Positions 18,441 to 50,494 of a stretch of DNA of 64,000 nucleotides are shown here, piece after piece. Where the stretch lies: contig JAPDRO010000004.1 in assembly GCA_030247885.1 (NCBI GenBank), forward strand, positions 124,001 to 188,000. The letters run 5' to 3'. Source of the DNA: Taxawa tesnikishii (nom. ined.) (lineage: Eukaryota; Ascomycota; Dothideomycetes; Dothideales). The notes under the pieces are model-generated. The model had not been told where the DNA came from, ran no database searches, and saw only the letters and a program-made list of their open reading frames with translations. Position 1 is the first letter of the stretch, and each line of letters starts with the position of its first letter. Both the position numbers and the translations under genes were made by a program.

Positions 18441-18566
18441 GGGCTTGCTCATGTCGCCGGCCACAGTGTCGCTCGTATTGCACTACCTCGGGCTGACGCG
18501 AAAGCTCATCTTTTTTTCATCAGTTCTTCTGTGTCTTGAGCGACCGGAAGCTGGAGAAGAGGACGC
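18441..18566 (+). repeat. Dispersed repeat, copy A
   Basis: A 126-bp block beginning GGGCTTGCTCATG and ending AGAAGAGGACGC that recurs at 34670-34792 in the same orientation. The copies differ mainly at C/T positions, with this copy carrying T at several sites where the other has C. That is suggestive of mild repeat-induced point mutation. No coding content is recognised. Confidence 0.75.
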
Positions 18567-22130: not shown

Positions 22131-24140
22131 TCAAAGAGTGTAGAAGTCGAGGTAGTTGTCGAATGCGGGCCCAAAGTGGACGTAATGCTTGCCCTTGTTG
22201 ACGACCTGGAAAGAACCCTGGAGTGCTTGGAAATCCACTAGGCGCATGTCATGACCAGAGACCTTGAGCACGAGTGACTCTCCCTTCTCGAAGATGATGC
22301 CAGTGGGCCAGAGGGACAGGTGGAGCTCGATAACATCGCCGACGGGCACAGTGGTGTTGCCCACGTGGGACAGAGTCTCTCTCCACGGCTTGGAAAGTTC
22401 AGGGGCGACAGCACGTCTGGAAGCGCGAACTATACCTTCGGGACCCAGATACTTCAAGATGCTGACTGAAGGAACTTCACTGGCGCTGCTAACACCAAGA
22501 TCTGACAGCGGCTGGTTAACGCTTTGAAGCAGAGTTCCGTTGGCATCAGCCTTCCGGATCATGACGTAGACATCTAGGTCGTCCTGCAACTCAGCAGAAA
22601 GATTGATAACCACCTCGCTCGAGCCGGCAACGTAGGTTCTCTCTGGGAAGGTGTAGTTGAAGAGCAGCTCGCCATCGGTGCTAGAGTCATTGTTGAAGGT
22701 GGCGACATCAGCCTGGTAGCTCAGAACGCCTGACACGCGGTCGTCAATTGAACCATTTGTCGAGAGGCTTTGATCGGCATTGAGGTAAAGCCTTTGCTTC
22801 TTGGCATTGGGCTGGGTCCAGGGCAAGTTGGGGTAGGAAAGGACCTGGGTAGGATTGTTGAATCCAAGAACAGACAGGCGAACTGGAGGAGTCTGCTCCC
22901 AATTATTTTTGATATCCTTGAGGTAGTAATCGAAAAATTTGTTGAGATCGTTGGTGCGCTCCTCGGTGTACAGATCGTACCACTCTTGGGTGTGGTGGAC
23001 GGTCAGCCTGATGTTGCATTAGTTTTTGGTTCTACCGACCGCACATGCAGAGTCGACGAGGAAGTGGAGACATTACCATTTTTCATTGTGAAGAATCTGT
23101 TCAAAGCCTCGGAAAGCACCAAGTGTGTGAAGGTTGGTCGAGTAACTGCCAAGGATATAGGAGGGAACTTGGATCTTGGTAAAGTCGGCGCGCTTATCGT
23201 CCCAGTACGAATCTCTTTCGGGATAGCGGCTGAGCATTGTCACTAAATCTTCCTCCTGCTGGTGTCCTATTTGAATTTGGTCAGCATATCTAGGGTAACT
23301 CACTGCCAAGGACACAAACCTGGCAAACTCTTTTGGATCAACTCAATGAAGCCGGTGTTTGGAACTGCACCTCGAGCAAGGTCTTCACGCAGAATATCAC
23401 CTGCACCCTCGAGAGGTGCGATGGCCGTCAAGTGAGGCGGCTGCTGAGCAGCGATAAACCACTGAGAGATGGCGAGCCATGAGTTTCCAGCAGTGGCAAC
23501 CTTGCCAGTACACCAGGACTTCACAGCGAGTGCTTCGATAAAGTCGTAACCGTCCTCACCCTCGGGGATCCCCACCAGCGGATATCGCCCTCGGAGTCGC
23601 CGGCACCACGAGAATCAACGTTGACGACGGCGTAGCCTCTGGCAACCCATTCGGCAGGATCAAGTCTACCAACACAGAATTTGTCAGCGTTTGGTCGCAG
23701 CCAGCTGCGTTCTCGAGAACTGACCCTTCAAAAGACTCGTAGCCGGAGAGTTTCGACTCGGCAACGCCGGCTCTAAGGGCAGCTGAGGCCAAGTTCAATG
23801 GACCTGCGCCGCTTTTGCCGTATGGACCCCAAATAACGAGTGCAGGCACAGTTTCGTTCTGCACTGGGCGAAAAATGTCGGCACGAAGAGTGACGTTGTC
23901 TCTCATGAGAAAGGGTTGATTGTATTCGTATACGATGTCGACGGGCAGCGCCCTAGACCCGTTATGCCTGACATGTCCCTTGGGAAGGATGGTGGTACTG
24001 GCTGGATTGACAGTGGTGTTCAGTCTGACGGAGTCGATCTCAGCGACACTGTACGTGGTATCACCTAGAGTCTCGGTTATGTTATCGGCGTGAGCCATGG
24101 TAGCCAAGAGGGCGAGCAGAGCAGAATGAACAAGAAACAT
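22131..24140 (-). CDS. Secreted CocE/NonD-type hydrolase (S15 peptidase family)
   Basis: Predicted 609-residue secreted alpha/beta hydrolase of the X-Pro dipeptidyl-peptidase (S15)/CocE group, whose members act as acyl esterases, acylases or peptidases. A signal peptide starts MFLVHSALLALLATMAHADN. Seen motifs are VDSRGAGDSEGD after strand 4, the nucleophile Ser in AGNSWLA, and the probable catalytic Asp in EWYDLYTEE. The C-terminal half reads as the PepX_C jelly roll. Three introns fit: 23666-23724 (GTCAGT, GCTGACA branch), 23267-23319 and 23008-23076 (GTAATG, ACTAATG branch). One base is missing at about 23570 (four G where five give RWWGIPEGEDGYD). The start at 24140 is placed by the signal peptide. 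Substrate unknown. It lies beside the P450 cluster but lacks the shared promoter palindrome. Confidence 0.85.
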
Positions 24141-24183
24141 CTTGGGGAGTGCGCGTTGATAACCAGTGTGCGTCAAGGGTAGC

Positions 24184-24213
24184 TGAGGGGTACTGAGGGG
24201 TACTGAGGGGTAC
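24184..24213. repeat. Three 10-bp tandem repeats in hydrolase leader
   Basis: Three perfect copies of TGAGGGGTAC, 44-73 bp upstream of the hydrolase start codon, lie in the probable 5' UTR of the minus-strand transcript. Confidence 0.9.
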
Positions 24214-24240
24214 TGATGTATCGACGTTGGGCACTGCATG

Positions 24241-24252
24241 ATTTATATAAGC
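24241..24252 (-). promoter_or_regulatory. TATA box of the S15-type hydrolase gene
   Basis: On the minus strand the sequence reads GCTTATATAAAT about 100 bp upstream of the start codon at 24140, a good position for a TATA box with a leader of roughly 70 nt. Confidence 0.5.
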
Positions 24253-24312
24253 AAGTCGTATGCTAATCGCTTTGCTGAAGATCGTCTCGCGGATCGAGGA
24301 GCCTCCGTGACC

Positions 24313-24522
24313 GTAGGGTCTATTGAGCGCCATGGAATTCTCGAATACTAGCACCACTCGTCGCTTGGTAGCGTTATATAGCATTAGTAAGAGTCTATAT
24401 GACTCAAGACCTGGATTGAGGAAGATTTTAGCGTAGAAAAGTGGCTTACTAATGGTGAAATACGCTATAAACCGAGGATGGTGCTAGTATTGCAGGACTC
24501 CATGGCGCTCAATTGACCCTAC
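24313..24522. mobile_element. Foldback (MITE-like) inverted repeat
   Basis: Two arms of about 79 bp (24313-24391 and 24445-24522) are imperfect reverse complements around a 53-bp spacer. Matching blocks include ATTGAGCGCCATGGA, AATACTAGCACCA and CATTAGTAAG. No transposase is present, so if mobile it would be non-autonomous. It sits directly upstream of the S15-type hydrolase promoter. Confidence 0.7.
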
Positions 24523-24574
24523 GCTCCGTGACCTGTACTAACGGTGCACCGTCAGATAGCATAACGAACTGATG

Positions 24575-24688
24575 GATCCGCATTTTCAAACTTTAAAGGA
24601 AAGGATTGAGGAGCCTCCGGGATCCGGAATGACGGTACGCTATGAGAGGGCACGTCGAGCTGACAGATCCGCATCTCTAAACTTTAAA
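24575..24688. repeat. Pair of 23-bp direct repeats
   Basis: GATCCGCATTTTCAAACTTT (plus AAA) at 24575-24597 recurs at 24666-24688 with three C/T differences. A second pair, GAGGAGCCTCCG, occurs near 24297 and 24609 and brackets the foldback element. Confidence 0.75.
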
Positions 24689-25147
24689 ATTTCGGGGCTT
24701 TTGCCGCGCCGCATAGCCGCGTAGTAACGTCAATTACGCGGAAGCGGGTTTCAAAGGGAACCGAGAATTGCAGAGGGATTTTGAGGGATGCTCAGGTATC
24801 TGCTGAAGCCTCCAGGTTCTGACACCAATTCTCAGTTCCGTATACGTGTCGTTTCCCTATGATCCACGTTAGTTGCCGCGACAACACTTGCGCGTACTTT
24901 GTATCGCCAGCCCCATAATCTCTTTCTCACAGATGACGGACAGGGGAAGACCCTCAACGATCTCCAGCACGTAGTGACAAATTCCGAAAGTTACGTGCAG
25001 ATACTTTCATGTGAGGTCCGAGATATTGTCGCAAAAACAAAAATATTACATGAGGTTTCTATGGCTCTAACAATAACACCGTAATCTACAGTACGTATAA
25101 TTTGAAATCAAAGATACCCAAGTCTTGCCAATCCTCTGACGTGGTCC

Positions 25148-27002
25148 TCACAACAAGTCTATGCCCGTATACGACGCGGTGTTGTTTCTGTGAATTTCGA
25201 CAACACGCTCATCGCCGATGTTGAACTGATAGATACTCCCTCCAAGATCGGCAACATAGATTTGTTGACTCTGCGAATCAACTTTGAGACCAATTGCTTC
25301 ATTGAAATGCCTGGCTAAGATCGACCGCTTCTTGATTTGAGACCCGACGTGGGCCATGTTGAGGAGTTTCCAAACGGATGCTCGCCACGATCGGTCCAGT
25401 ACAAGGTCTGTGTGGCAGACACAAAATCTAGATCGATTGGTTCAGGTAAGTTGTCGAAAAGCATCTCAACATCGGACCTAGTGGAGGCTGTCTCATTGGC
25501 TGGCATTTGCAAGCCTGCTCGAAAGATGCGCCCCATTCCGGCCTTGGAGGCGCCTTTCTGACACCAATAGATGTGACCACGCTGTGAGTCAACAGCGATT
25601 CCTACGCACCAAAGAGTCTGATCGGTTCTGTGTTCAGGTCGTTGCCAGTCACCAGTCTGTAGCAAGATCTCGTGGCCACTACCGTCGAGATTGCAACTGT
25701 GAATACGGAGACCTTCACGATCGCAAAAATATAACCTTTTGACTGCTCGTCGAGCGTAAGTTGCTTCGGTGTGTGGACACTGCCTTCCGGAATGATGACC
25801 TGGAGGTCCGTGCCATCCAGCGCAGCCGACATGACTCTTCCTGTGTTGGTAGAAACGGAAGATCCCATCAAAGTAAAAAACATGCGATTAAGGGAGGCCG
25901 AAGCGACTATGCCGTCCGGAAGCGGGAGACCGGTGACAAGCTCCCGTGTGGTTTTGCCATCGCTAGTGATGGAAAGGACCCGCCCAGATTTGACAGAATC
26001 CTCAGGTTTCAGCACGTTGGTTCCAGTTCCCACATCCAGAACGTAAAGCGAAGGCGTTTCCGTAACCTTGTGGTCGGTGTTTGCCGTCGCATCTCCTGGC
26101 TTGACTTTGGCACCGTCGTTGCTAGGCGGATACAGACCACCATTTCCCGGAGACTTCGCACCGAGCCTGCCCTTGTCGATGTAGTTCTTGCGTAGGAAGT
26201 CTACTGTCGAGGTGGTGTCTAGTCCCCGCTCCTTGACATAGTTGTCCTCGATGAAGGCGACCGTATCGAGACCGACTTGATCCATCAGAGCACAAGGAGC
26301 TACCTTCGCTGCGAACATTTGACACCACAGCTTGTCAATCTGGCCGGGATCGGACACGTCCTCGGCAATTATCGTAAGAATTTCGCGTTTTATCGCAGCC
26401 CAAAGTCGATTCATGATGAAACCAGTGGACTCTTTGCGGGCGGTCGCGGGCGTCAGACCGATGTCCTCGTGTAGCGTAGTCAAGAAGGGGAAGATCTCTG
26501 GATGTGTGAATCCGTCCGTCATAAGCTCGACAGCCAGGATGTCTGGAGGCATTTGGTAGTGCGCGTTGAGGATACGACGTTTGCCATCCATGGGAACCTT
26601 TTCGATCATCAAGCTCGACTTGTAACTCGAGCTGTTGGAAGCCATGATGCAATCTCGAGGAGCAAGCTGAGCTACTTCCGCGAAGACATCGATCTTCATC
26701 GAAAGTACCTCCGGCACTGCTTCGATAACGAACCAAGCATCTTTGACGGCAGGCTCGATGTCCGCAAAAGCTTCATACCTTCCGGGCTTGCGTTCTCCTT
26801 TAGACAGCTTTGTGTAGGTCTCAGTCCAGATGTTCTCATCGATGTACCGCATTGCTGCGTTGCGGGAATTCTCGCTGGGATCTCTGATGTGAACATCATA
26901 GCCAGCGGCTGCCCATACGCATCCAATCCTGCGACCGAGCACGCCGCCCCCGAGGATGGCGACCTGGCGCTGCTTGGGATCGGGGAGATCAAAATGCAAC
27001 AT
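25148..27002 (-). CDS. 3-hydroxyacyl-CoA dehydrogenase fused to YWTD-type propeller
   Basis: Predicted intron-less 618-residue fusion. Residues 1 to about 300 are a 3-hydroxyacyl-CoA dehydrogenase: the NAD motif ILGGGVLGRRIGCVWAAAG, then IEAVPEVLSMK, MASNSSSYKSS and NAHYQMPP around the catalytic His, followed by the all-helical C-terminal domain. After a Gly/Pro-rich linker, residues from about 325 form NHL/LDL-receptor class B-like blades (LYVLDVGTG, RMFFTLMGSS, IYWCQKGASKAGMGRIF, TLYWTDRGEH, IYVADLGGSIYQF). Known relatives oxidise 3-hydroxyacyl-CoA or hydroxy acids with NAD. What the propeller binds is unknown. The frame shifts by one base at about 25738 (A run) and about 25365 (C run). It is divergent from the P450 across 571 bp carrying two TCGGCCGA sites. 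The dehydrogenase call is firm and the substrate is not. Confidence 0.88.
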
Positions 27003-27573
27003 GCTGAGTTTAATGATGGGCTCTCAGATGATGAGATTTGGTAGAAGTGAAAATAGTAGAGACTCTGTGGGAATAAACATCTCGGAGGGTAAGCTGTGCT
27101 AGGAAGATATAGAACTCCCACTGCACCACCAACGCCATACGCTGTCAGAACCCACAAACGCTCCACAGTCACTCTCAGACGATGATTTGTGAACCTCGAT
27201 CGATCCGAAATCGCATCTCGCATCTCGCATCTCGGGTCTTCGTGAATGGGAAAACCCCACCTGGGTGAGCACCCGGATCCGCTCGGGACTGTGCTTCGGA
27301 GCCGCTGGCTCGCCGTATGACAGCTCGGCCGAAAGTCTTGGCTATTGACCGACACAACGTCTCGAAACGTCTCATCGCGCGCTTGTCCTCGGCCGAGACT
27401 AGACTCTGGTCTTGACGGCTTGGGAAGCGGTAATGTAATGTAATGCTTTGTGCTTGGTAACTATAAGATCTCTTGCTACAAGAGAAGATACATGCTTCGT
27501 ACAACTGTTGAAATCAAACACTTCGCCCATCCAATTCTTACCATCACACTTTTCTTAGTGAGCGACATCTAAG
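27003..27573. promoter_or_regulatory. Bidirectional promoter with TCGGCCGA sites
   Basis: This 571-bp gap serves the divergent dehydrogenase-propeller and P450 genes. The palindrome TCGGCCGA occurs at 27325-27332 and 27389-27396. It contains inverted CGG/CCG halves, the type bound by Zn2Cys6 dimers. CGGATCCG (inverted CGG halves with two-base spacing) lies near 27284. Short tandem runs are also present: CATCTCG three times at 27214-27234 and TAATG three times at 27431-27445. Confidence 0.65.
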
Positions 27574-29352
27574 ATGACCACCGAAACCTACAAGTTCTAC
27601 CTTCTTGGTGACGATCCTAGCACCGCTGTCGAAACCACCTTCGATAGCGCGCACGATGATTTGACGGCGCTGAGGCGCCGTGTCGGTCAAGCTTTGCACG
27701 TCGTCCAACCTCAAGGCAATTCACCCATACCATCTACTGCCTTCTCCCTCCGTACTAACGCTCGGCACGGCAGGCATCACTTTCCACGTTGAACACAGAG
27801 CGGCGATCGATAACATTGACCAACTTACTGGTGTTACTTCACCCATCGGCTGTCTTGTTGACGGTCAACATGTGCGGGAAGTGCAAGGCCCCCAAGGCCT
27901 CCCAGTCGTAGGCTCGTTCTACGAGGTCTTTCCAGATCACCTTGGAAACCACGAGAGACTTTTCAGGAAATACGGTTCACTCATCAAGACCGTGAACATG
28001 GGCAAGACGACATATCTGACCAACAGTCCCGAGATCGCTGCCAATGTCTTCGCCGAGTCGCCATACATGACCAAATACATCAATCCGAGTCATCCATTGT
28101 TTGGTCTCAAAGATAACACCGCTCTCTTCGTGGGAGACACTGAGACGGACAACTGGCGTCTGGGGCACAAATTTATCCCGCCGGCCTTGTCACCCAAAGC
28201 AGTCAAACACTACACACCACTCATGCAGGATACCGTTCGTGCTTCATTCAAGGTCTTTGATGAGTTGGACAAACGCAATGAAGCTTTCAATGTGTATCAG
28301 TACATGTTGAAGCTTGCCTCCCAGACGATCGGCAAATTCGCGTTTGGTGTGGACCTGCACCAATTCGACGATGTCGACTCGCCCTTACATGCTCTTGTGA
28401 TGCACACAGCATCCGTTTTGGCGCTCAACAAAAAGATTTCTGCCCGCGGAGAATGGTACAAGAGCCTCCCGTTTGGCGATCCTGCACTGCTCAAAAACAC
28501 CCATCGCAAGTTGTACGCAATGATTCAGGATGCCATCGATGCCGTCAAGATGGACGAGAGCGCAGATCTTCAGCTCGACGACGCGGCTTTGAAGGCCTCT
28601 TGCGTAGTTGACTACCTGTCGCGCGCTGTCGATAGTCAGGGGCAGAAATTACCACTCAACTTGATCTTGGCAAACATGGTCATCATCTTCGGCGCTGGGT
28701 TCACGACTACCTCTGCAGCACTGAGCTGGATGATATTCTCGTTAGTCAACTACGAGGGAGCTCAGGAGCGCTTGCTACAAGAGCTCGTTGACAGTGGTAT
28801 GGACGGCAAGAGAGACTGGGATGCTGATGATATTGCCAAGCTATCGTACCTCGACAGCTTTGTCAAAGAAACACAAAGACTACACAACCCATCATTCCAA
28901 GTGAGTTCGTCTCCAACCGAGACTCTTTCAAATCTGGAAACTGACATCACTTCCAGCCGGGTCGCACAACCAAGATGGCGTGTGTCATGCCTGAGGGGTA
29001 TAGAATGCCTGCGGACGCTGTCATCATTCCGGCAATCTATGCTATCCATTCGAACCCGAAAATCTGGCATGATCCTCACAGATTCGATCCGGACCGCTGG
29101 AACACGCCCGAGGTCAAGCAGCGTCATCGCTGCGCCTACATTCCATTCGCCACAGGACCAAGGGGCTGTATCGGATTCAACTTCGCTCTCCAAGAGATCA
29201 AAGTCCTGCTTTCAGAGTTGGTTTATCGCTACGAATTCGTTCGCGAGGGTGATGAGGCCGTCGAATACGATCCCGAGTTCCAACTCATCAGACCTCTTAA
29301 TTTCTTCGCTTACGCTAAGAAGAGGACTTCGTGGCCTGAAAAGAGTTCTTGA
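27574..29352 (+). CDS. Cytochrome P450 with non-membrane N-terminal domain
   Basis: Predicted 554-residue P450 monooxygenase. The heme loop FATGPRGCIGFNFA (Cys at about residue 494), the ExxR in KETQR and FDPDRW are present. The I-helix reads IFGAGFTTTSAAL, with Thr where the usual acidic residue stands. There is no N-terminal membrane anchor. About 85 residues (YKFYLLGDDPSTAVETTF onward) precede the proline-rich GPQGLPVVGSFYEVFP hinge and could be a small separate domain. Introns are 27716-27773 (apparent GC-AG, donor GCAATT, TACTAAC branch; this joins VVQPQ to GITFHV) and 28901-28956 (GTGAGT, joins HNPSFQ to PGRTT). No frame break. Electrons may come from the cytochrome b5-b5 reductase fusion 2.7 kb away. 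Substrate unknown; a fatty-acid or other lipophilic acid would fit the neighbours. Confidence 0.9.
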
Positions 29353-29444
29353 TATGAGGCATCGCATATGTTTTCAGATAGTAAATCCTTCATTTTTCCT
29401 CAATCTACTATCACCCAAGACTGTGAATCATTCAACAACACATC

Positions 29445-31483
29445 TCAGATTCGATCTCGAATAGCCCGCAGGTGTGGTAGAAGCTGAGCATGTAGACCTG
29501 AACTTCTTCGAACTCCATCCTCGTCATACCATTGAGACGCCAGACCATCTTCTTCAAAAGTTTTGACAAGCTCTTCACTCAGATCTCGGACATTGTTGTG
29601 GGCTTGACCCCTGGTACTAGCAGAATATCCATGCAAGCAACAACGTTACTCGCAAATGCCCATGAGCGACAAACTTTTGGGCTTAAGCGGTGCATGTTAA
29701 GATAGCTGCGAATGACTTGCACGGCACTTGTCAAACATTTTTCCAGGAGCTGAGGCATCTCCGTGCTCCAATCATTGAGGGCCCGTAGCGAGGTATTACT
29801 TATATTGCATATAGCGTAGTGGACATGGATGTTGAGAGCCGCACTTTCGAGATGCTGCTTCAACGACCGGCATATGCCATCGCGGTGTAGGTGAGGCTGT
29901 GCTTGTTCCTGGACCGCCTGCATTTGATCGATGAACTTCATCGCGAGTGAGTGCGAAAGGCCTGCCTCTTGGGCTCTGCTGACACGCATAACTATTTCGC
30001 AAAGCGTCGAGATCGAATCTGTAAGCGTGTGACTTTTTCGAGCTTCGAGCTCGAAAGGAATATCGCAGTTCGCGACAAACGAACTTTGAGGTCGATCGCA
30101 AGAGATGGATAGCAGCGTATCATGACGTACGATCATCCACCTAGCATCATCAATCAGTCATGCGAGGACGGCAGTCAATGGAGGGATGTCACCTTGCCAT
30201 AATTTAGCTTTTCGTATTCTGTCGGCTGAATCCTGTGAGTTCAGAGAATCGTGTAAACCTTGACAACATCTGTGGAGTCCGCAGGCCTGGCCCGATCGTA
30301 CAACAGTACCTGAGAATTTTGAGCATTGACAACGAGGCTTCTGTCGCCATTGGAATATGACATACCCATCAAGTTCCACGCAGTATTAATTTGCATATTG
30401 TCGCGAAGGCATATTGTAATCAAGAGCTGAGTCCGGATGTCGACCAATCTAGGCGCGGCCAAGAAATTCGCAATACGCAAGCATTGCATTGATGAGCAGA
30501 CTAATTCAAGTAAGTTTGCTTGGCGAACAAAGAGAAAAAAGGGGCAAGTACGCTTACTGAAAACTTTCGAGGTCAAATCGCGTTCCTTGGCATTGTTCTC
30601 ACAGTATTGCGCGCCCAAGGCCAACACCGCAAAAATGAGGCCCAAGACAGATGGGTCCCAAGTGGATGGAGTTTCGTCATCTTTCGCGTGGTGATTGCGA
30701 CTTTCCAAAAATGAACACAGCTGTGCCTCAAATTCTTCACAATCCTCTAGAATAGGATAAGATATGTAGGCTGTCTCTTGATAATGCTGCCAAAGCCTGT
30801 ATACATCTGCATCAGATGGTAGACATGAGCAAAGACGTTTCAAGGATACAGGAGGTGACCAGATGTTCAGAAAAGGATATGAAGTGAACATGGCCTCCTC
30901 TATGCGCCCACTCAGGCCTTCCGAAAGCCGGAAGCTATTATTAGTACTCAGACCAAGGAGAGAGGGAAGCACAGAATTGGTCCCAAGGAAGGCAGGCGTT
31001 GAAGTCACCGGATCAACGGCAATGATCGGTGAGAGAGGACTCGTTGCAGGAATGTTAAGATCTGCTAGACCGCTGGTGCGCTGCACTACACGATCGCCCA
31101 CAGACTGCTGACCGGACTCGGACGGTGTGGCGTTGTGAGACCGAGGAGAGACATGCTGAAGTCGAGAGCTAGAGGATGCATCGCGAATGTGCGAGCCCGA
31201 CGGTACACTACGAGAAAAGGGGTTGTGAACGAAGAAACGCAAGCGGTGGTGATGCAGTGGCTGTTTACCTCGGTGAACGGGACTCTGGCAGCCGCTCAGG
31301 GGGATGTGATCTCGTGCCGGTGGTGCGACGAGGTGGGTTCGGGATAACGCATGCATCTGCGAGACCCCTCTTGATACAAGTCGAACAAGGGACGAAGCCG
31401 TCGCACTTGACCTTTTCCTTGGTCAATCTCTGCATCCCAAATCACATGAATTGGTCACATCCTTTACCTTCCGTAGACGACAT
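29445..31483 (-). CDS. Zn2Cys6 transcription factor (fungal_trans type), cluster regulator candidate
   Basis: Predicted regulator of about 600 residues. The zinc cluster reads TKEKVKCDGFVPCSTC then IKRGLADAC. The first two Cys (a CRDC block at about 31434-31423) are in place if one base is missing there, which makes a perfect C-x2-C-x6-C-x5-C-x2-C-x8-C. The middle and C-terminal parts match the fungal-specific TF domain (WNLMG, VVRSGQACGLHRCC, LWWMIVRHDTLLSI). Introns are 31208-31268, 30501-30557, 30310-30365 and 30141-30197. The last fits only as GC-AG (donor GCAAGG), giving the conserved LWW. A further one-base loss near 29615 (C run) hides the true C-terminus, which ends at 29445. The start (ATG at 31483 used here) is uncertain. 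It is convergent with the P450 and divergent from the b5 fusion gene, so it is likely to regulate both. Confidence 0.85.
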
Positions 31484-32070
31484 GACACGCATGTCGTTAT
31501 TGTACGACGGCCCTTGTTTCTGGGCCTGCTATTGTTGTGGTGGTTCCCATCGGCCGCGTCGGCAACCTGCTTTGCAGCTTCACCGGGCGTCATTTCTTAT
31601 TTCTTGACGATGTAAGTCAAGTGCAAAGACCAGGCGTTATTGCGGGTTGTGGAAGAGATCCGGAGGGAATGTTCGGCGTAGAAGTTATGATTGAGACATC
31701 ATTCCGAAATCCCTTGCTTACGGTCGGCCGAGTTTTGGTCACGTGGATGATTTCGCATCTGGTTCTCGGCCGAAAGCCTCACGGAGCTTCGAAAAGCCGC
31801 GCATCCTGCGCGGCAGGAAACGTCTTTATGAAATGATCGGCCGACAATCCACCGCTATCATCTGGTCATCATCTAGAACAATGTCATTGAAAATGCTTAG
31901 GTCCCCTCGGATTGAAACAGTCCCGTCAAACTCAGGGGCAGCGGCTTCTTCTTTATATCTGCTGGGGACCAGCTCTCGAAAAATCATACTTCGATCTCAT
32001 ATTTCAATCCCTCTCCCCGCCTTGCGCTTCCTCTAGATAATTCATCCTTTCCATCATCCTTTTCTAAAAC
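31484..32070. promoter_or_regulatory. Bidirectional promoter with clustered TCGGCCGA sites
   Basis: This gap lies between the divergent regulator and cytochrome b5 fusion genes. TCGGCCGA occurs at 31724-31731, 31766-31773 and 31837-31844, and the near match TCGGCCGC at 31550-31557. The site at 31766 shares the longer context CTCGGCCGAAAG with the one at 27325 in the other cluster promoter. CACGTG lies at about 31740. Confidence 0.7.
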
Positions 32071-33600
32071 ATGTCACAGCAGTTTAGCCTCGCCGACGTG
32101 CAGAAGCACACCGAAGGCGAAGACTTGTGGATCGTTGTGCACAACAAAGGTAGGACCACACAGCTTTCGTCACTTTTGATATCTCTACGCCAACGCTGAA
32201 TTCCGTCACTAGTGTATGAAGTTGGCAAATATCTCCATGATCATCCTGGCGGTGGTGAAATCCTGAAGGAACTCGCTGGGCAGGACGCCACGTCTGGCTT
32301 CGAGGATGCAGGTCATTCTGATGACGCTCGCGAAATCATGGATAAATTTGTTCTGGGATCACTGACAAAGGAGGTGAGCCACTCTATCTCCTGCATACGC
32401 TTGAATATCGGGAGCCAACATACTCTCGCAGGATGAATCGGAGGCCGTTGAAGTGTACCGACCAGTATTCAAAGCTGTGTCTCAAGTGTCGTCACTCGCG
32501 GCAGAAGCCAACGACTCGTACAGGATCACTCCCTTGCCATTCTCGCCGGAATCAGTGCCACAGCTTTGGCAGGTTATGGCATCCTCAACTTTCAGCCAAA
32601 TCTCATTCATAAAGCGACAGAATCATTCTCGAAGATGGGTATCAGGCGCATCGGTGACGTGAAGGGCAGCGCCTTCTGGGCTGGAATGGCTTTGGCTACG
32701 ACCGCTAACGTTTTCATCGCTGCTGGAGCGATATTCTGGATTGCTGGACATCTCGACATTCATCAGGACTTTACAAAATATGCATCACACAAACCAATCA
32801 GATCCGATGTTGTTATTCAGCGCAAGGTCGATCAAGCGAAGGCCCAGCGCAAGTCTTTGGATCCCCAGAAGTGGCGACAGTTCGCGCTCACGTCGAAAGT
32901 CAGAGTATCTCCAAATGTTTACCGCCTCGTTTTTGCGCTCAACAAATCGACCGACGTTCTTGGATTGCCAATAGGTCAGCATATTGCGATCCGTGCCAAC
33001 ATAGACGGCAAAGACGTTCAACGATCATACACCCCTATATCCAACGACAAAGACCTTGGTCGTATCGAACTATGTATCAAGGTCTACTCTGGTGGATTGA
33101 TCACTAACTATCTCGCAAATCTCAACATAGGTGATAAGGTTGAGATTCGCGGGCCTAAAGGAGCGATGACATATTCGAAGACGTTGGTCAAACACATGGG
33201 CATGATTGCTGGCGGTACTGGCATCACGCCAATGTATCAACTGATTCGTGCGATTGTCGAAGATGATTCGGACAAGACCACAGTCAGTCTTCTTTACGCC
33301 AACAACACCGAAGAGGACATCTTGATGCGTGATGAGCTCGAGAGTTTTGCTCAACTTAAGCCTGAGAAGTTCCAGATTCACCACGTCCTCTCTCGCGCGC
33401 CCGAGGATTGGTCTGGGCTCAGGGGCTTCGTCACCGAGCAGCACATCAAGGATTGTCTGCCGCCGCCCTCAAACGACACCAAGATCTTGATGTGTGGTCC
33501 GCCGGGAATGATTGAGGCCGAAAAGAAGAACTTGGTCAACCTTGGCTTTGATAAGCCAAGGGCCATGTCGAAGATGGAGGATCAGGTCTTCATGTTTTAG
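32071..33600 (+). CDS. Cytochrome b5-cytochrome b5 reductase fusion
   Basis: Predicted 469-residue one-chain redox partner. Residues 1-90 are cytochrome b5, with heme ligands in DHPGGGE and the His of AGHSDD. A linker and one or two hydrophobic segments follow (AILAGISATALAGYG; ATTANVFIAAGAIFWIAG), so it is probably ER-anchored. The C-terminal 290 residues are a FAD/NADH reductase with RSYTPIS (FAD), GGTGITPMYQLI (NADH) and CGPPGMIE. Introns are 32150-32212 (GTAGGA) and 32374-32431 (GTGAGC). One base is missing near 32545 (C run), where TPL should run into AILAG. The chain could carry NADH electrons to heme enzymes such as the P450 nearby. That partnership is inferred from neighbourhood and the shared TCGGCCGA promoter motif. 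Confidence 0.9.
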
Positions 33601-34669
33601 ATACGCTGGTTATTATCTCGTTACAATCAACACTTTGCGTCCTGCTCTGGTAATGTCTTCCGTCGATTATAGCTTGGGAACGTATTGCCAGACAGGTAGA
33701 CCTGAGGCATGCATCTTCCACCTATGAGGATTGCAAAACACCTCTACCTGCGTCAGCGAGCATGATGAAGACATGGCACCCTATTACTCCGCCACATACG
33801 GCGAAAACGGCGACCCAGACAGCAATTCCGGCATCCGTATCAATTTGCTCTGTAGGGTGTTATGCTCGGAGCATTCCAGATCGACAGCATTGATCATCAG
33901 CCCTTGAGTCGCCTCAGGAATATTGAAGACAAGCACTGGCGAAGGACAACGATAGTTTACCTGCTCTCTTGGCCGTGTTGTTCCCTGAAGCACTACACTA
34001 CTACCGCTCTTGATCTGACCCTGAACATATGCGTGTACGCCGCCCTAACTGTTACGCGAATGCCTGACTAGTAGATGCTTTCAGCAGCTCCTGCAGCTGT
34101 AATTGCAGCTCGTAAGGTTTTTTAGCGTAGTGTAGTGGCTGACTGAGTGGATTCTTCCCTAGTGTTAATTAGTACTAGAGCGTGGTCACCGGAATCTTCC
34201 GGTATATCTCTTAGCAAAATCAATGAGAGTAGTTTAGTAGTGATTGTCGAGTAAGGCTATCATGTTGTCACCACAAAGTCATCGTGATATTATTATAGTG
34301 ATGTACCCAAGGTGCTTACGGAGACCCTCCGTTGAATCAAGCTTATCATACGGCTACGCTATTAACCACTATGCTCAAAGGGCAGTTTGGCTTTGCTGCA
34401 GTGCAGTTGCGGCTGCTGCAACAGCAAGTGGATCCAGAGCGCCACACACCTTACCGTAAAAGGCAGTTCAACGGTGCTGCAACTGCAGCAGCAGCAGCTG
34501 AAAGCATCCAGTCTCTCTCAGAAAAGCGGTCATAGATGGACTTGGTAGCTCATGAGATGGCCTGGACAGAGCGATCAAGCGTCACTTGAACTAAGACAAC
34601 TGCAGCCCATATCTTAATTCTACCGTACTATACATACCTGGCGCTGCTATGGCAAGCGCCGCCTTCTCC
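33601..34669. other. Intergenic, no supported gene
   Basis: About 1.07 kb without a coding signal. GCTGCAG/CAGCAG-rich patches occur at 34090-34110, 34395-34430 and 34478-34500. Nothing else is recognised. Confidence 0.5.
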
Positions 34670-36966: not shown

Positions 36967-38313
36967 TTACATGTACTCCTCATAAGTCATCCCTCGTAGC
37001 TTCCTTTCCTGCCAGATGCTCTGCTTGGTAAGCCCCGCGTTCAAAGATTCGCCTATCTGCCTCTCCATCGTCTCGTAAAGCTGCGGCTCGAACGAGACCT
37101 CGGCCCATACTTTGAAGAGCCTGCGCCAGTAACAGACCTCCGCCGCCGGACTAAGATAACGTTCTCGGAACTTGAGCACGGCGTTGTCGGCAATACGTTG
37201 TGCTTGGTGAGGATGCGTGAGGTAGTACTCTATCGTCTCTTCCAGGTTTGACCAGTCTCGACGTACTGGAACAAAGTTTTGATCTACGCCCTGCGATTCA
37301 AGAAGGTGATACCAGTGGGCGGTCCATTCCAGATCATGCACGATGGTTGCGGAGCGGCAGTTGATGAGGTACTTGAGGCGGCCGGACCAGCTTCTGCCTG
37401 TCGAAAGTGTTAGTGTTCGCCCGGAATGCGCAGGCGTGCCTGACGAACCTTCAGTATGAGCGCCGAACATCCATTTGCAGTGCTCGGGCATAGTAAGCTT
37501 CTTCAACGCCTGATCCGTCTTGTTACCCCAATCGAACGCGGACACGTCGCTCCAAGACTTGTCTTTCGTAACGTCAACAAGTGCACCACGGATCTTCTCG
37601 TTCACCCAGAGAGCGCCTCTCCAGACCAGCTTTGGCGTCTTCTCAGTAATCGGGACGTCGTACTCGCTGGCTGCTCTCTGGAAATCCACAAACGATCCGA
37701 CAACGTGCTCCCAGCTCCACAGGTTAAAGTCCGGCATCAACCAGAGCTTGTCATGTGCTGATTTATTTGTGTTCCTGGCGTAACTCCACATGGTATGTTC
37801 GACTCCATTACGGGTTGGTGGATCTGCCACGTCCGTGACCTTGAAAGCAAATTCGATGTTCGGTATCGGTTCTCGCGATGTGCTTATGGCCCGGTTGATC
37901 TGATTTAGGGTAGCCAATGCGCGTCTGCGAAGTTGTGGGTCGTTTGTGGCATTCTTGCTCTCGATGACATAGAGTTGCTTGTTGTATATCAATGCCCTTA
38001 TTGCACCGAGCTTTGACCATGAAAGGTCGATGTTCTCGGCCCGTACACCGCCATTCTCACCCCAGTAGTCCAGCGCACGATCAATCTCGTGGTAGAGCGC
38101 GGGAAATGCGGCATCGCATTGTTGCTCTGTAAAGGTGAAATCATTTGCGTGACGACTAGCGTTGAAGCTCCACTCAGTACCCGCGAAAGGAATCCTCAGA
38201 TGTCGCGAGAAGGATTGATCCTCGGGCCCGGCGGGTATCAGAGAATTCAAAATTAGAACGACAATGAGAAAGGAGACGAAGACGAACAGGCCCCTCCGGA
38301 AGAGTGGCTCCAT
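36967..38313 (-). CDS. CAP10/GT90-type glycosyltransferase, type II membrane protein
   Basis: Predicted 431-residue Golgi-type glycosyltransferase of the CAP10 (GT90) family, whose members add xylosyl or related sugars to fungal polysaccharide or glycoprotein. A single N-terminal signal anchor (LFVFVSFLIVVLILNSLI) follows a short basic tail. Family blocks are LWLMPDFNLWSWEHVVGSF, KLVWRGALWVN, CKWMFGAHTEGRSWSGRLKY (after splicing), TIVHDLEWTAHWYHLL and FVPVRRDWSNLEETIEYYL. One intron, 37398-37448 (GTTCGT, ACTAACA branch, CAG), is exactly 51 nt with no stop, so a 17-residue insertion would result if it were retained. No frame break. The start at 38313 is set by the anchor. Confidence 0.88.
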   Translation of the reverse strand: MEPLFRRGLFVFVSFLIVVLILNSLIPAGPEDQSFSRHLRIPFAGTEWSFNASRHANDFTFTEQQCDAAFPALYHEIDRALDYWGENGGVRAENIDLSWSKLGAIRALIYNKQLYVIESKNATNDPQLRRRALATLNQINRAISTSREPIPNIEFAFKVTDVADPPTRNGVEHTMWSYARNTNKSAHDKLWLMPDFNLWSWEHVVGSFVDFQRAASEYDVPITEKTPKLVWRGALWVNEKIRGALVDVTKDKSWSDVSAFDWGNKTDQALKKLTMPEHCKWMFGAHTEGSSGTPAHSGRTLTLSTGRSWSGRLKYLINCRSATIVHDLEWTAHWYHLLESQGVDQNFVPVRRDWSNLEETIEYYLTHPHQAQRIADNAVLKFRERYLSPAAEVCYWRRLFKVWAEVSFEPQLYETMERQIGESLNAGLTKQSIWQERKLRGMTYEEYM

Positions 38314-39434
38314 ACCGGAAGAGCGTGAGAAACAGAAAGGTCAGAGGCACTGAAGAATGATGTACAAAAGAGTGAGTGCGAGTGAGACATGTATTGAAGA
38401 AGAGGGCTGTAAATGCAAGGGACAACATGCCTATGTAGTACCGACGATGCGGCCCGTATCTGTCAAAGTAAGGCCTCAGCCAGACGGTTAACCACGCCGG
38501 TGCCATGGCTGACTGAAGGTTCCTACATCCGAGCCTACCGTTTCCAAAATTAGGCGAAGAGCGCACAGCTATCGTCCAGCTATCGAAGGTGAGATATGGT
38601 AGTAGGGTTGCACAGACTGCGCAAATGCGGCAGCTTCAGACTGTCTCGGGACGTTTGCTCTGTGCCACGCGGAAATGTGTCACATCACGGCTCTTTGCAG
38701 GGCGACAGATTGGTGTCGCAGGCCAGATGCTTGTTCAGCTGCGGGAAGACTATCAGGTCGTTTGAAACGAGGCAACGTCTGATCGAGGCCCTTGCATGGC
38801 ATGCTTGCTGTGAGATTTCGCTTTATCGGAAGACTCGACTCAGTTGAGGCGAGGAGCTTGGGCATACTGTAAGAGAACCCGTCTCCGGTAGTCGTCGTGT
38901 ACATAGGTTGATCAGCCGAGAAACCTTAGTGTTGACAGTAGTTGAAAGATTCGAAGGTCGAAGGTCGAAGGTTGTTCGGCGCTCGATGAAACGGCTTGTC
39001 GCGTGCTTGGGCAATTGGTCAGAAACGCGAGGACGCTTTGCCCTGTTTGCTCGGCTTGGCTTGCCATAATTGGGTCGCGCTTTTTCCCATGCGGGCAACT
39101 TGAGCATATCAAACTTGAGCATATCAAACTGCCCGCACAAACACATTGCTGAACCTTAGAACAGGCAGAGGCATTTCGTGGAGACAGGCAAGCCTGCTGT
39201 TCCTCCGAGAACAAGACGGATCTAATTTTGCAAATCGGGCTTAGCGACCAGCTCTGAAACGCTGGATACAAGCAAAGCAAGGCCTGCAATGGGAGGATTG
39301 CGTGGTTCCATCTTCACTTCTTTCAACTACATCGGCCGTGAATGAGCATTTTCGAACACGCTAGGACCTGAGTTGGAGATTGTCAAAACCCCTTGTTGAA
39401 GACTTGCTTTTCTGTATTCTCTTTCGCTGACAAG
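38314..39434. other. Divergent promoter region with a 15-bp duplication
   Basis: About 1.1 kb between the divergent CAP10 and importin genes. A minus-strand open frame (38174-38566) overlapping the start of CAP10 in another frame has no support. A 15-bp unit AACTTGAGCATATCA is duplicated in tandem at 39097-39126. Confidence 0.5.
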
Positions 39435-42400
39435 ATGGCTGCTCCTGTGATCCCAGAAGCGCGCTCTATCCCCGAAGCCATCCAGCTCGTCAAATGTCTC
39501 AACGACCCGCGCTTCTCTACTCTGGTTCCCCAGATCTCGAATCAGTTGCAAGCGCTTCAGCTTTCACCTTTTGGTTGGGAGGCTGCGGATGCAATGCTCC
39601 GCGATGATGATGCTAGCGTCAGATTCTATGGCGCGTTGACATTCCAGGTGAAGCTGAACAAAGATGGGTAAGTTGCTTGTGATCCTGGACTGTGGTACGG
39701 TATCAATCTCGTATTGAAGGCCTGTATGCCTACCGACACATGCCCTGTGGCATTTACTGACAGTTGCCAGGAAATCCCTCAGCGAGAGTGATGCGGGTAA
39801 TCTCTTGAAGAAGCTATGGCATTGGTTTGTCCGTACTATTTCCGTATATGCTTTTCCTCAAGAACGTGTCGCTGATTCTACCAGCATTCGAGCGTGCGTC
39901 GATCAGAGGGCAGGCTTGTGCTCGATAAACTGTGTTCTACATTGGCCACATACTTCATTCAGTCGTCTGTGCCATGGAAACAAGCAGTCCTTCACACAGT
40001 CAGCGGCTTTTACAAAGGTCCAGCAAAGCCGAAAGAAGTCGTTACCGTTGAGGACGTCGTTCCTCAACTCGCTCCGAATGAACTCTACGTGTCGCTACGA
40101 TTCTGCAGCATTTTAGCCGAAGACGTGGCGAACTCAGACAGTCTGAGCCCCCAGCATCGCCACTTGGACGGTCTTTTGAAAGAGAACATCGCTGCTGTGA
40201 CACTCTTGATCCGAGCTGGGCTTTCGAACCCCGAAGCTCGAGATGTCCACTCGGAAGCACTGAATGCCTTCTCAAGCTGGATCAACTACGCGCAAGCTCA
40301 TTGGGCCCGCGACTTTGATACCTTGCGATACCTGCAAGAGCTAACCCTTCCTATTATGCAGTTCCTCATCTCCGAGGATCTTTACTTGAGGGATTCGGCA
40401 ATTGAAGTCTTCACACAAATCTTGGAGTATCACTTCAAATTCCTGCGGAGAGATCAAGCAAATACTCTAGCAGAGCTCCTCTGCAACGTCTTAGGTCCGC
40501 AATGTGTGTCTGAACTGCGCGGTGGGGAGCCCGATCCCAGTGTGGCTTCCACCGGCAAGCTCATGGCTGCTTACGGTAAAGCTACTGTGCAGAGGATTGT
40601 GGAATCGTCAGATGACCCGATCTCCGTCAAGCTAACAGACTTCTTCCAAGAGACCATCCGTGGGCCGGGCTACCCTGGGGATGAGGACGAGATCATCATC
40701 CCTGTTACCGATTTCTGGACTGATTACGCACAGTACGTTGTGGATGAATTCGAAATGTCCTCATCAGCCGATGACCTGCCGTGGCTGAACGTCGCCAAGG
40801 AAAGATTGATGCGGGCTGCAGCATCGTACTTGTTGAAGCTTCGCGCTCCGCCAACCTCTGAGATTACCAGTTGGGATGAAAGCACCAAGGAGCGTTGGAA
40901 CTCTTTTCGAGAAGACGTCTCCGACATGTTGCAGAGCATTGTTGCGCTGCCAGACACCGGCTTACTGAAGGAACTGGTTAATTACGCTCTGAATGTCCTA
41001 CCAACCAGGCAATGGCTTGACCTGGAAGCTGTCTTGTTATGTTTGAACGCGGTCGCAGATACCGCACCACTCATGAAAGAGAACGACAATGTACTGGCTG
41101 CGCTAATGGGCTCAACTATGTTCCAAGACTTCTCAAACTCTAGTAACGACATACCAGCACGAGCCAAGCGTCAGCTCATGCGACTGCTCGATTGCTACAG
41201 CGCTTTTGTGAAACGCCGCACAGAGTTTCTTCCCGCGATCCTTACCTTCCTTCTGAGCACCCTTGCGTCAGCGTCAGCAACACAAAACTCGTTAGGAGAC
41301 GCCGCTGCGAGATCACTCAAATCTCTGTGTTCATCCTGCAGACGTCCTTTGACCCAGCATTTGAATGAACTACTCCAGCAAACCCCTCAAGCTCTGACCG
41401 GGTCGTCGACAAATACGTATCAGAAAGAAAAGGTCATGTCTGCCCTTGCGTCCGTCGTTCAAGCTCTACCTACCGAAGAAGGTAAGGCGCAACCACTGAC
41501 GATCCTTTTGGAGATGGTGGAAAATGATCTCAACCAAGCAATGGGATACATCAGTCAGGGCAATAACGAGGTAGGCGAAGGAGTAGGCACCTCCGCTTTG
41601 CAATGCTTGGCCAGCATCGGAGAGGGCATGCAAGATACAACAGGCGATGTCGCCGTCGATCTGGAAAGCGAACAGGCCCCCTCATTGAGCGACCCGCGCA
41701 ACTTCTGGAATAGCTCAGCCGGACAAGCCGTGCAGCAACGCATACTCAACTGTTTCAACATCGTTGATCATCTCCAGAATCAAGGCGATGCTATTGATGC
41801 GGCTTGTTCTGTCCTCCGCGCCGGTCTCAAGGAGACTGCGCCGGGACCATTCGTTTTCCCCCAGCGTTACTGCCGGTTTTGTCAGCAAAGGACGCCTGAA
41901 CACCCCCAGGGTTGAGGCCATGCTAATCACTGGTTGCGCATTCGTTTCGGCGAACTCCAGACACGCTACCAACCGTCTTGTCTCGGAGGTACACCAAATC
42001 TACCAGGCTGCTGTCAGCATCATACAGGAGCTTGGTCAACCGGGCAACGATCCAGGGCTTGCAGAGATCTGTATTGACTTGACCGAGAGACTCCTGGCTC
42101 GTTACGTTGACGTCTTGTTGTCAATATCGGACGAAGAGCTTGGCGCCGTATTTAATTTCACACTGCGCTGCATGGTCGGCGAAGCGCCAATACTCAAGCG
42201 CCTTGCCGCCAATTTCTTCGTAAGTAGCATGAACTCTCGATTCCGCAGACCATGACGGGCACCCCAGCTAACACAACTCCCAGACCACCTTCATTGACCT
42301 CACCGGACCAAATGCGCGTACAGACCTGCCATCAACCCGCATCCCACCCGCCGCCGTCATCAGCGAATTCAGCCCTCTCCTCGCAAGCGCACTGATGAAC

Positions 42401-50050: not shown

Positions 50051-50494
50051 GTTGCTGCTGTGCTTGTTAGCGAAGGTGGATTGTTCGCATTCGATGTTGT
50101 TAACGTACCTGAACGGTAGGGAGGTGCAGCCGACGCGTCTGTGTGCATTGCACGAACGTCAAAGACGCGCTCTGCCGGAGACATTCCGCCATCAGCAAGC
50201 GAAGAAGACGAGTCGATGAGTCAGTTGAGTCCGCCGTGAACGAGTAAGTGTGCACCACGTATTGATCCCCTCGCTTTTCGACTGTATACAACATCAACGG
50301 TCTGCTTCGTGTGGTTGTATTCGCCATTGAGTTGATTGTTCGTTTGCGCGGCATTCTCTTGACAAAAAGCACGCATGATCCGATACCGCCGATAACATCA
50401 AACCTTCTGCCACATCAGTCCTAAAACATATACCACCGATAACTCTGCTTTCCATTGCCCGCAGGTCTGCTACCCTGTGCTGCGGAGGGCAATC
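50051..50494. promoter_or_regulatory. Divergent promoter of ORC2 and ArgJ
   Basis: About 440 bp between two housekeeping starts. A minus-strand open frame beginning MPRKRTINSMANTTTR at 50354 followed by a probable intron suggests that the ORC2 leader is spliced or has an extra 5' exon. I could not decide which. Confidence 0.45.

What the first reader, a model, noticed from the sequence alone, without database searches (positions are those of the whole stretch)
25148..33600. Divergent four-gene oxidative cluster with its own regulator and redox partner
A dehydrogenase-propeller fusion, a P450, a Zn2Cys6 regulator and a cytochrome b5-b5 reductase fusion lie within 8.5 kb in two divergent pairs. 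The redox fusion could feed the P450 and the dehydrogenase could act on the hydroxylated acyl product. No PKS, NRPS or terpene enzyme is near, so this looks more like a dedicated catabolic or tailoring route than a classical secondary-metabolite cluster. I know of no described pathway with this exact set (inference).
Basis: partly seen in the sequence, partly recalled or inferred. Interest (0 to 1): 0.8.

Follow-up and report, generated by a model that had tools for sequence, protein, structure and literature searches.

The report
Fungal P450 cluster with shared motif
Four neighbouring fungal genes (an oxidising enzyme, its likely electron supplier, a two-part dehydrogenase and a regulator) share one DNA motif that occurs nowhere else in this stretch, so they are probably switched on together to process some still unknown compound; the same three kinds of enzyme gene were already noted as a co-expressed trio in a wheat fungus.

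Summary
The four genes are real and lie as described (25148-33600), in two divergent pairs. The dehydrogenase-propeller frame is interrupted twice, more likely assembly error than decay. The palindrome TCGGCCGA occurs five times in 64 kb, all five in the two divergent promoters (two and three copies): strong sequence evidence for one regulon, probably run by the resident Zn2Cys6 protein. The set is not undescribed: Derbyshire et al. 2015 (PMC4557397) reported a co-expressed trio of b5-b5-reductase fusion, P450 and hydroxyacyl-CoA dehydrogenase in Zymoseptoria tritici; deleting either of the first two gave no phenotype. A Fusarium figure legend (PMC5907747) lists the same three classes beside trichothecene clusters. 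Not found in my ten paper searches: the regulator, the shared motif, and the nature of the propeller, a YWTD-type domain without a Pfam family above cut-off, which in bacteria lies within 2.5 kb of a 3-hydroxyacyl-CoA-dehydrogenase-type gene in 63 of the 80 loci kept (of 463) and is sometimes fused to one, in either order. Best reading: a small catabolic module; b5-b5 reductase feeds the P450 and the dehydrogenase-propeller oxidises a 3-hydroxy acid derived from its product. Substrate unknown; P450-to-dehydrogenase coupling inferred.

The parts
25148..27002 (-). 3-hydroxyacyl-CoA-dehydrogenase-type / YWTD-propeller fusion gene; frame interrupted twice (near 25.74 and 25.36 kb)
26148..26966 (-). 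dehydrogenase domain (3HCDH_N + 3HCDH), type-1 subfamily
   Evidence: residues 13-285; one search places it with 37 type-1 rows, branch 100/100, on a long branch
25151..26065 (-). YWTD-type propeller domain (start approximate), in three frame pieces; 58 of 59 near-invariant bacterial columns kept, counted leniently
27325..27332 (.). palindrome TCGGCCGA, putative operator 1, dehydrogenase/P450 promoter
27389..27396 (.). palindrome TCGGCCGA, putative operator 2, dehydrogenase/P450 promoter
27574..29352 (+). cytochrome P450; no N-terminal membrane anchor seen, about 80 N-terminal residues without family match, I-helix AGFTTT
27716..27773 (+). GC-AG intron of the P450 gene (inferred from the reading frame)
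28901..28956 (+). GT-AG intron of the P450 gene (inferred from the reading frame)
29579..31593 (-). Zn2Cys6 regulator with several introns (exon ends partly by eye)
31724..31731 (.). palindrome TCGGCCGA, putative operator 3, Zn2Cys6 / b5-b5-reductase promoter
31766..31773 (.). palindrome TCGGCCGA, putative operator 4, Zn2Cys6 / b5-b5-reductase promoter
31837..31844 (.). palindrome TCGGCCGA, putative operator 5, Zn2Cys6 / b5-b5-reductase promoter
32071..33600 (+). cytochrome b5 - cytochrome b5 reductase fusion with two hydrophobic segments between the domains; 2 or 3 introns (two models keep the frame)

Best explanation
A conserved, substrate-induced catabolic micro-cluster of filamentous ascomycetes. 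The resident Zn2Cys6 protein binds TCGGCCGA palindromes in both divergent promoters and switches on itself and the three enzymes (co-regulation: strong sequence evidence; identity of the binder: inferred). The b5-b5 reductase fusion passes electrons from NADH through its b5 heme to the P450 (inferred; the same proposal is in print for Z. tritici). The P450 oxygenates a small, perhaps plant-derived compound (inferred). The dehydrogenase-propeller then oxidises a 3-hydroxy acid or acyl group that arises from it, the propeller being the substrate-binding or substrate-handling half (that dehydrogenase and propeller belong together is shown by bacterial neighbourhoods and fusions; the chemistry is inferred).
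For: TCGGCCGA 5 of 5 in the two promoters. Domain calls for all four genes. A trio of the same kinds co-expressed in Z. tritici, up in potato dextrose versus Czapek-Dox medium (PMC4557397). The same three classes among genes flanking Fusarium TRI clusters (PMC5907747 legend). In 80 bacterial loci kept of 463, a dehydrogenase gene lies within 300 bp of the propeller gene in 44 and within 2.5 kb in 63; 76 such genes in 396 kb of inner flank against 3 in 820 kb of outer flank. Propeller-dehydrogenase frames in L027 and L034 and a dehydrogenase-propeller frame in L071. In four rhizobial plasmid loci (L004-L007) the pair lies near a CoA-transferase gene, in two of them also near acyl-CoA dehydrogenase and enoyl-CoA hydratase genes.
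Against: Deleting ZtCBR2 or ZtCYP-24 gave no reduction of virulence or sporulation and no evident change in vitro (PMC4557397). The P450 has Thr at the I-helix acid position, so ordinary O2 activation is not certain. Only 1 of 89 bacterial loci has a P450 hit, about 4.5 kb from the propeller, so the P450-dehydrogenase link rests on fungi alone. 16 of 80 bacterial loci show no dehydrogenase in the DNA held and 1 only beyond 2.5 kb; two propeller loci on plasmids (L008, L009) have none, and two dehydrogenase loci (L001, L002) have no propeller. Gene 1 is interrupted in this assembly. Orthology with the Z. tritici and Fusarium genes was not tested by sequence; no fungal collection was at hand.
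Confidence: 0.55

Rival explanations
1. The four genes share a regulator and an inducer but not one linear pathway: a stress or xenobiotic response set in which the P450 with b5-b5 reductase acts on one compound and the dehydrogenase-propeller on another.
For: The bacterial dehydrogenase-propeller pair occurs without a P450 (1 hit, about 4.5 kb off, in 89 loci). Z. tritici deletions had no phenotype.
Against: The shared palindromes lie only between these four genes. Co-location of the three enzyme kinds is reported in Z. tritici and suggested by a Fusarium legend.
Confidence: 0.25
2. A tailoring cassette of a secondary-metabolite pathway whose core enzyme lies elsewhere.
For: A P450 with a pathway-type Zn2Cys6 regulator is usual in such clusters (general knowledge, no call).
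Against: No PKS, NRPS or terpene enzyme among the ORFs of 150 aa or more or the pieces scanned. Rhizobial relatives of the propeller sit in CoA-dependent catabolic surroundings.
Confidence: 0.08
3. The propeller is a lactonase, so the fusion opens a lactone and oxidises the 3-hydroxy acid released, as gluconolactonase-type and L-gulonate-3-dehydrogenase-type enzymes do separately.
For: The type-2 dehydrogenase half of the Leucobacter fusion is structurally closest to CRYL1 / L-gulonate 3-dehydrogenase. The propeller has many invariant charged residues.
Against: No SMP-30 lactonase among the 50 fold rows shown (of 1973 matches); of 40 sequence rows, 36 are LDL-receptor-type or nidogen and the other 4 are not lactonases. 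No metal site could be shown. A weak sub-cut-off Arylesterase match (E=0.049) is the only hint the other way.
Confidence: 0.12
4. Chance neighbours with a decayed dehydrogenase gene.
For: Two frame interruptions in gene 1.
Against: Shared palindromes. 58 of 59 near-invariant propeller columns kept, lenient count. A like break in the neighbouring hydrolase points to the assembly. Published co-location and co-expression of the same gene kinds.
Confidence: 0.05

Closest known systems
ZtCBR2 / ZtCYP-24 / hydroxyacyl-CoA dehydrogenase cluster of Zymoseptoria tritici (Derbyshire et al. 2015, PMC4557397)
   Same: b5-b5 reductase fusion, P450 and hydroxyacyl-CoA dehydrogenase as neighbours; proposed there as one co-regulated electron-transfer chain; similar expression shown there
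   Different: That paper speaks of three genes; a term search of its main text found no transcription factor, propeller or zinc. Sequences were not compared here
Genes in the 3' key of Fig. 4, flanks of the TRI clusters in Fusarium (PMC5907747)
   Same: 3-hydroxyacyl-CoA dehydrogenase, NADH:cytochrome b5 reductase, an unknown gene and a P450 carry the consecutive letters I-L
   Different: Only the text and legend of section 8 were read; that letters follow gene order, and that these are orthologues, is inference
Bacterial YWTD-propeller / 3HCDH-type gene pair
   Same: The propeller keeps 58 of 59 near-invariant columns (lenient count); the dehydrogenase domain groups with the type-1 genes that adjoin the propeller in many actinobacteria
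   Different: Separate genes or other fusions; no b5 or Zn2Cys6 partner (not expected in bacteria) and no close P450
Diketoreductase, L-gulonate 3-dehydrogenase and carnitine dehydrogenase branches of the 3HCDH superfamily
   Same: 3HCDH_N + 3HCDH; best solved relative of the fungal domain is a diketoreductase (4dyd, E=1.1e-27)
   Different: No NCBIfam cut-off reached; substrate cannot be read from sequence

Membership tests
Zymoseptoria ZtCBR2-type micro-cluster | b5-b5 reductase fusion, P450 and hydroxyacyl-CoA dehydrogenase as neighbours | tested here: met
   domains, compared with the text of PMC4557397
Zymoseptoria ZtCBR2-type micro-cluster | orthology of the individual proteins | not testable with these tools
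   no fungal sequence collection
Zymoseptoria ZtCBR2-type micro-cluster | co-expression | not testable with these tools
   no expression data for this genome; the shared palindromes are indirect evidence
Cytochrome P450 superfamily | P450 profile, ExxR and heme-cysteine motif | tested here: met
   PF00067 E=2.9e-68; ETQR and FATGPRGCIG read in the spliced model
Cytochrome P450 superfamily | acid in the I-helix AGx(D/E)TT motif | tested here: not met
   AGFTTT aligned with AGHETT and AGYETT; natural exceptions exist (recalled)
Membrane-anchored fungal P450 | N-terminal membrane anchor | tested here: not met
   best 19-residue hydropathy mean in the first 85 residues is 0.80; rests on my exon model
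3-hydroxyacyl-CoA dehydrogenase superfamily | 3HCDH_N and 3HCDH domains | tested here: met
3-hydroxyacyl-CoA dehydrogenase superfamily | CoA thioester as substrate | not testable with these tools
   no assay; no NCBIfam cut-off reached among 19 families listed
SMP-30 / gluconolactonase propellers | family match or closest fold | tested here: not met
   no Pfam family at 1e-3 for propellers L043 and L029 or for the L064 frame; fungal end piece only sub-cut-off NHL and Arylesterase; no lactonase in the rows shown
YWTD (LDL-receptor class B) propellers | fold and YWTD repeats | tested here: met
   model of the Leucobacter fusion, pLDDT 93.6, against nidogen 1npe TM 0.84 by target; LRP and LDLR hits by profile
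Classical fungal secondary-metabolite cluster | PKS, NRPS or terpene core enzyme nearby | tested here: not met
   67 ORFs of 150 aa or more read by eye; Pfam on 9 cluster pieces and 10 other window pieces; shorter exons not all scanned
Zn2Cys6 pathway regulator | Zn_clus domain | tested here: met
   PF00172 E=5.1e-10
Zn2Cys6 pathway regulator | binds the palindromes in its target promoters | not testable with these tools
   sites found, binding not testable

The most novel reading that the evidence does not exclude
The propeller is an undescribed intracellular YWTD family that binds the acid substrate of its partner dehydrogenase, and evolution has joined the two repeatedly: as neighbours of two different dehydrogenase subfamilies, as propeller-dehydrogenase frames (Geodermatophilus), as dehydrogenase-propeller frames (Leucobacter and this fungus), and as a TetR-propeller frame beside a divergent dehydrogenase gene (Kocuria; a similar frame in Corynebacterium), where it would act as the sensor. 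The fungal cluster would be this module with an added P450 electron chain and a fungal regulator.
Probability: 0.35. Interest if true: 0.65.

Novelty: new member of a known kind. Interest (0 to 1): 0.5.

Why it matters
The trio has been seen before, but in what I read it had no regulator, operator or clue to its chemistry. The five palindromes make the regulon testable with one binding assay and a genome-wide motif search. The bacterial neighbourhoods give the two-part dehydrogenase a second, experimentally easy home (rhizobia, actinobacteria) in which to look for its substrate. A propeller group without a Pfam family above cut-off that keeps company with 3-hydroxyacyl-CoA-dehydrogenase-type genes is a concrete target for enzymology.

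Tried and rejected
No whole genome is held for the window, so synteny in fungi could not be tested. Scans of viral contigs with the P450, dehydrogenase, b5-reductase and propeller found no relatives. The 15 plasmid P450s shown of 420 records are 25-28% identical. The SMP-30 lactonase idea lost ground because the matches shown are to YWTD receptors and nidogen. The FarA/CTF1 motif CCTCGG (passages of PMC5068947) was considered: one of the five sites (27389) carries it, the other four do not (contexts), so a fatty-acid-regulon reading was not adopted. A search for TCGGCCGA returned 167 papers; none of the 15 listed concerns a fungal regulator by its title. PMC10512309 was looked at for a Fusarium lactone link; its tables name dehydrogenase and SMP-30 genes, but nothing ties them to this cluster.

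Neighbours of the bacterial pair were scanned with Pfam in selected loci (30 proteins) and in some loci without a dehydrogenase (10 proteins). Regulators were frequent and one acyl-CoA thioesterase stood beside a propeller (L083), but no common pathway emerged, so no substrate is claimed. The 16 of 80 loci without a dehydrogenase, and the one with it only far off, are counted as misses. The 80 loci are the best of 463 by similarity to a Tsukamurella propeller, and 77 of the 80 are actinobacterial by record title, so the fractions describe that set. Of 19 plasmid records with a propeller only 6 were opened (L004-L009).

The column count is lenient: in a few columns two fungal fragments overlap and a match by either was accepted. 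The dehydrogenase type-1 profile included the window's own domain; the tree is the independent check, with the window row on a long branch. NCBIfam gave weak sub-cut-off matches of three bacterial propellers to ScyD/ScyE.

Papers, what was seen: PMC4557397 passages, sections 17 and 25 and part 1 of section 32; PMC5907747 one passage and section 8; PMC5068947 and PMC10512309 passages; all others only as search listings. Statements that something was not found in print rest on the ten paper searches of an open-licence library.
Full report
WHAT IS THERE. The window is fungal (introns, a Zn2Cys6 gene, a U2 snRNA at 18313-18507). Between 25148 and 33600 lie four genes in two divergent pairs. Gene 1 (minus, 27002 to 25148) has 3HCDH_N and 3HCDH domains followed by a propeller. 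Gene 2 (plus, 27574-29352) is a P450 (PF00067 E=2.9e-68) with two inferred introns. Gene 3 (minus, 31593 to 29579) is a Zn2Cys6 protein with several introns. Gene 4 (plus, 32071-33600) is a cytochrome b5 - b5 reductase fusion with two hydrophobic segments between the domains; two exon models keep its frame.

GENE 1 IS INTERRUPTED. Its frame breaks twice, near 25.74 and 25.36 kb, at short single-base runs. The neighbouring X-Pro-peptidase-type hydrolase breaks in the same manner near 23.57 kb. An assembly problem is therefore more likely than decay (inference). All searches used the pieces of gene 1 apart. Laid on an alignment of 87 bacterial propellers, the pieces agree with 58 of 59 columns that are at least 95% identical there (lenient where two fragments overlap).

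ONE REGULON. TCGGCCGA occurs five times in 64 kb: 27325 and 27389 between genes 1 and 2; 31724, 31766 and 31837 between genes 3 and 4. Whole-window shuffles give a mean of 1.24, and 0 of 100 reach five. All five falling in about 1.05 kb has a binomial probability of 1.2e-9. The motif was found after the fact, so two look-elsewhere checks were made. Of the 19 palindromic 8-mers with at least three copies in the window, this one has 5 of 5 copies in two 600-bp spans; the next best have three. In 2000 dinucleotide shuffles of the two promoters the largest shared palindromic 8-mer count was three, reached once. The core CGGCCG is an inverted CGG pair, the kind of site Zn2Cys6 proteins bind (general knowledge). 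That the resident protein is the binder is inference. The window holds no copy outside the two promoters.

THE TRIO IS IN PRINT. Derbyshire et al. 2015 (PMC4557397; passages, sections 17 and 25 and part 1 of section 32) report that the b5-fused reductase gene ZtCBR2 of Zymoseptoria tritici neighbours ZtCYP-24 and a hydroxyacyl-CoA dehydrogenase gene. The three have similar expression profiles: all up in potato dextrose versus Czapek-Dox medium; at day four of infection the two neighbours are significantly up, ZtCBR2 not significantly. The authors speak of a putative three-gene cluster and a possible co-regulated electron-transfer chain. Deleting ZtCBR2 or ZtCYP-24 changed neither virulence nor sporulation, nor anything evident in vitro. 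A term search of that main text found no transcription factor, propeller or zinc. In PMC5907747 (section 8) the Figure 4 legend lists 3-hydroxyacyl-CoA dehydrogenase, NADH:cytochrome b5 reductase, an unknown gene and a P450 under the consecutive letters I-L of the 3' key for TRI-cluster flanks in Fusarium; that these are adjacent and orthologous is inference. Sequence orthology could not be tested, because no fungal collection was at hand. The regulator, the palindromes and the propeller did not turn up in my ten paper searches.

THE DEHYDROGENASE-PROPELLER PARTNERSHIP. tblastn of the middle propeller piece against plasmids gave 19 records; the 15 shown are 52.0-57.6% identical. Six were opened: in four (L004-L007) a dehydrogenase gene directly follows the propeller gene, in two (L008, L009) none is near. 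Coming from the dehydrogenase side, three loci were opened: L003 (Tsukamurella) has a propeller gene directly upstream, L001 and L002 have none. In L004-L007 a CoA-transferase gene is near, in L006 and L007 also acyl-CoA dehydrogenase and enoyl-CoA hydratase genes. A scan of genome contigs (84,980 species) found 463 stretches that encode relatives; the best 80 were kept, 77 of them actinobacterial by title. In these 80 a dehydrogenase lies within 300 bp in 44 and within 2.5 kb in 63; 16 show none in the DNA held and one only farther off. 22 of 24 genus-level groups have at least one near case. Inner flanks hold 76 such genes in 396 kb, outer flanks 3 in 820 kb. Two dehydrogenase subfamilies are involved; the fungal domain groups with type 1 (branch 100/100, on a long branch, exact place unsure). 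Single frames hold propeller-dehydrogenase in two Geodermatophilus loci (L027, L034) and dehydrogenase-propeller in Leucobacter (L071). A Kocuria frame joins a TetR_N domain to the propeller (L075, PF00440 E=4.6e-8); a Corynebacterium frame looks similar by eye (L084).

WHAT THE PROPELLER IS. Bacterial propellers L043 and L029 and the L064 frame have no Pfam family at 1e-3. The last fungal piece has only sub-cut-off matches to NHL and Arylesterase (E about 0.05). NCBIfam gave only weak sub-cut-off ScyD/ScyE-type matches. The model of the Leucobacter fusion is confident (pLDDT 93.6, pTM 0.78). Its dehydrogenase half is closest to CRYL1 and L-gulonate 3-dehydrogenase (TM by target 0.81), its propeller half to nidogen (0.84) and LRP6 (50 of 1973 matches shown). 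A profile search gave 40 rows, 36 of them LDL-receptor-type or nidogen. Invariant residues of 49 propellers include K-Q, D-R-E-G, C-V-G, Y-W-x-Q-K-G, L-P-E-P-x-D, W-T-D-R-G and G-N. Three basic residues at like places after successive YWTD-type strands could form a pocket for an acid (inference; no coordinates to test it).

THE P450. It has the ExxR and heme-cysteine motifs in the spliced model. Its first 85 residues hold no membrane anchor, and its first 95 match nothing in the PDB below E=0.7. The I-helix reads AGFTTT where two solved relatives have AGHETT and AGYETT. The best solved matches are CYP4B1 and CYP3A enzymes. Of 89 bacterial loci one (L019) has a P450 hit, about 4.5 kb from the propeller.

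HOW IT MOST LIKELY WORKS. Regulator and palindromes switch on all four genes (strong sequence evidence, no binding test). NADH electrons pass through the b5-b5 reductase to the P450 (inferred, as proposed in 2015). The P450 oxygenates a small compound, and the dehydrogenase-propeller oxidises a 3-hydroxy acid or acyl derived from it (inferred from the superfamily and the bacterial surroundings). The substrate is unknown. I give the whole scheme 0.55, the co-regulation alone about 0.85.

NOVELTY. The cluster is a member of a kind already noticed. What I add is the regulator with its putative operators, and the recognition that dehydrogenase and propeller are frequent partners in bacteria, joined in several ways.

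Noticed in passing
window 18313-18507 (+): U2 spliceosomal RNA gene, 145.7 bits, model positions 1-192 of 192.
   Followed up: no
window 22131-24239 (-): X-Pro dipeptidyl-peptidase / CocE-type hydrolase (PepX_C) just beyond the cluster, with a frame interruption near 23.57 kb; no TCGGCCGA near it.
   Followed up: partly
window 39876-42255 (+): Importin-13/transportin-like protein (weak PDB matches) whose reading seems to change frame near 41.86 kb at a C-run (by eye), another hint of assembly errors.
   Followed up: partly
window 24001-34000: G+C of four of these five 2-kb bins is 0.495-0.500, against 0.51-0.59 in the rest of the window; could reflect a different history of the cluster.
   Followed up: no
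window 27205-27235: Tandem TCGCATC repeats in the dehydrogenase/P450 promoter; AGATGCGA has 4 of its 7 window copies in the two promoters.
   Followed up: no
window 48289-50220 (-), 51126-52157 (+), 53169-55247 (-), 36967-38340 (-), 59216-60229 (-): ORC2, ArgJ, a multicopper oxidase, a GT90 glycosyltransferase and an NmrA-like protein.
   Followed up: no
L075:7209-8819 and L084:3640-5439: TetR-type N-terminus in one frame with the propeller (Pfam-confirmed in L075 only), with a divergent type-1 dehydrogenase gene upstream: a possible sensor use of the propeller.
   Followed up: partly
L025, L032, L036, L040, L052, L089: In these Streptomyces and Kitasatospora loci the propeller gene has a type-2 dehydrogenase upstream and a type-1 dehydrogenase downstream.
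   Followed up: no
PMC4557397, section 17: The paper prints the same accession for ZtCBR2 and for the neighbouring dehydrogenase, apparently a slip.
   Followed up: no
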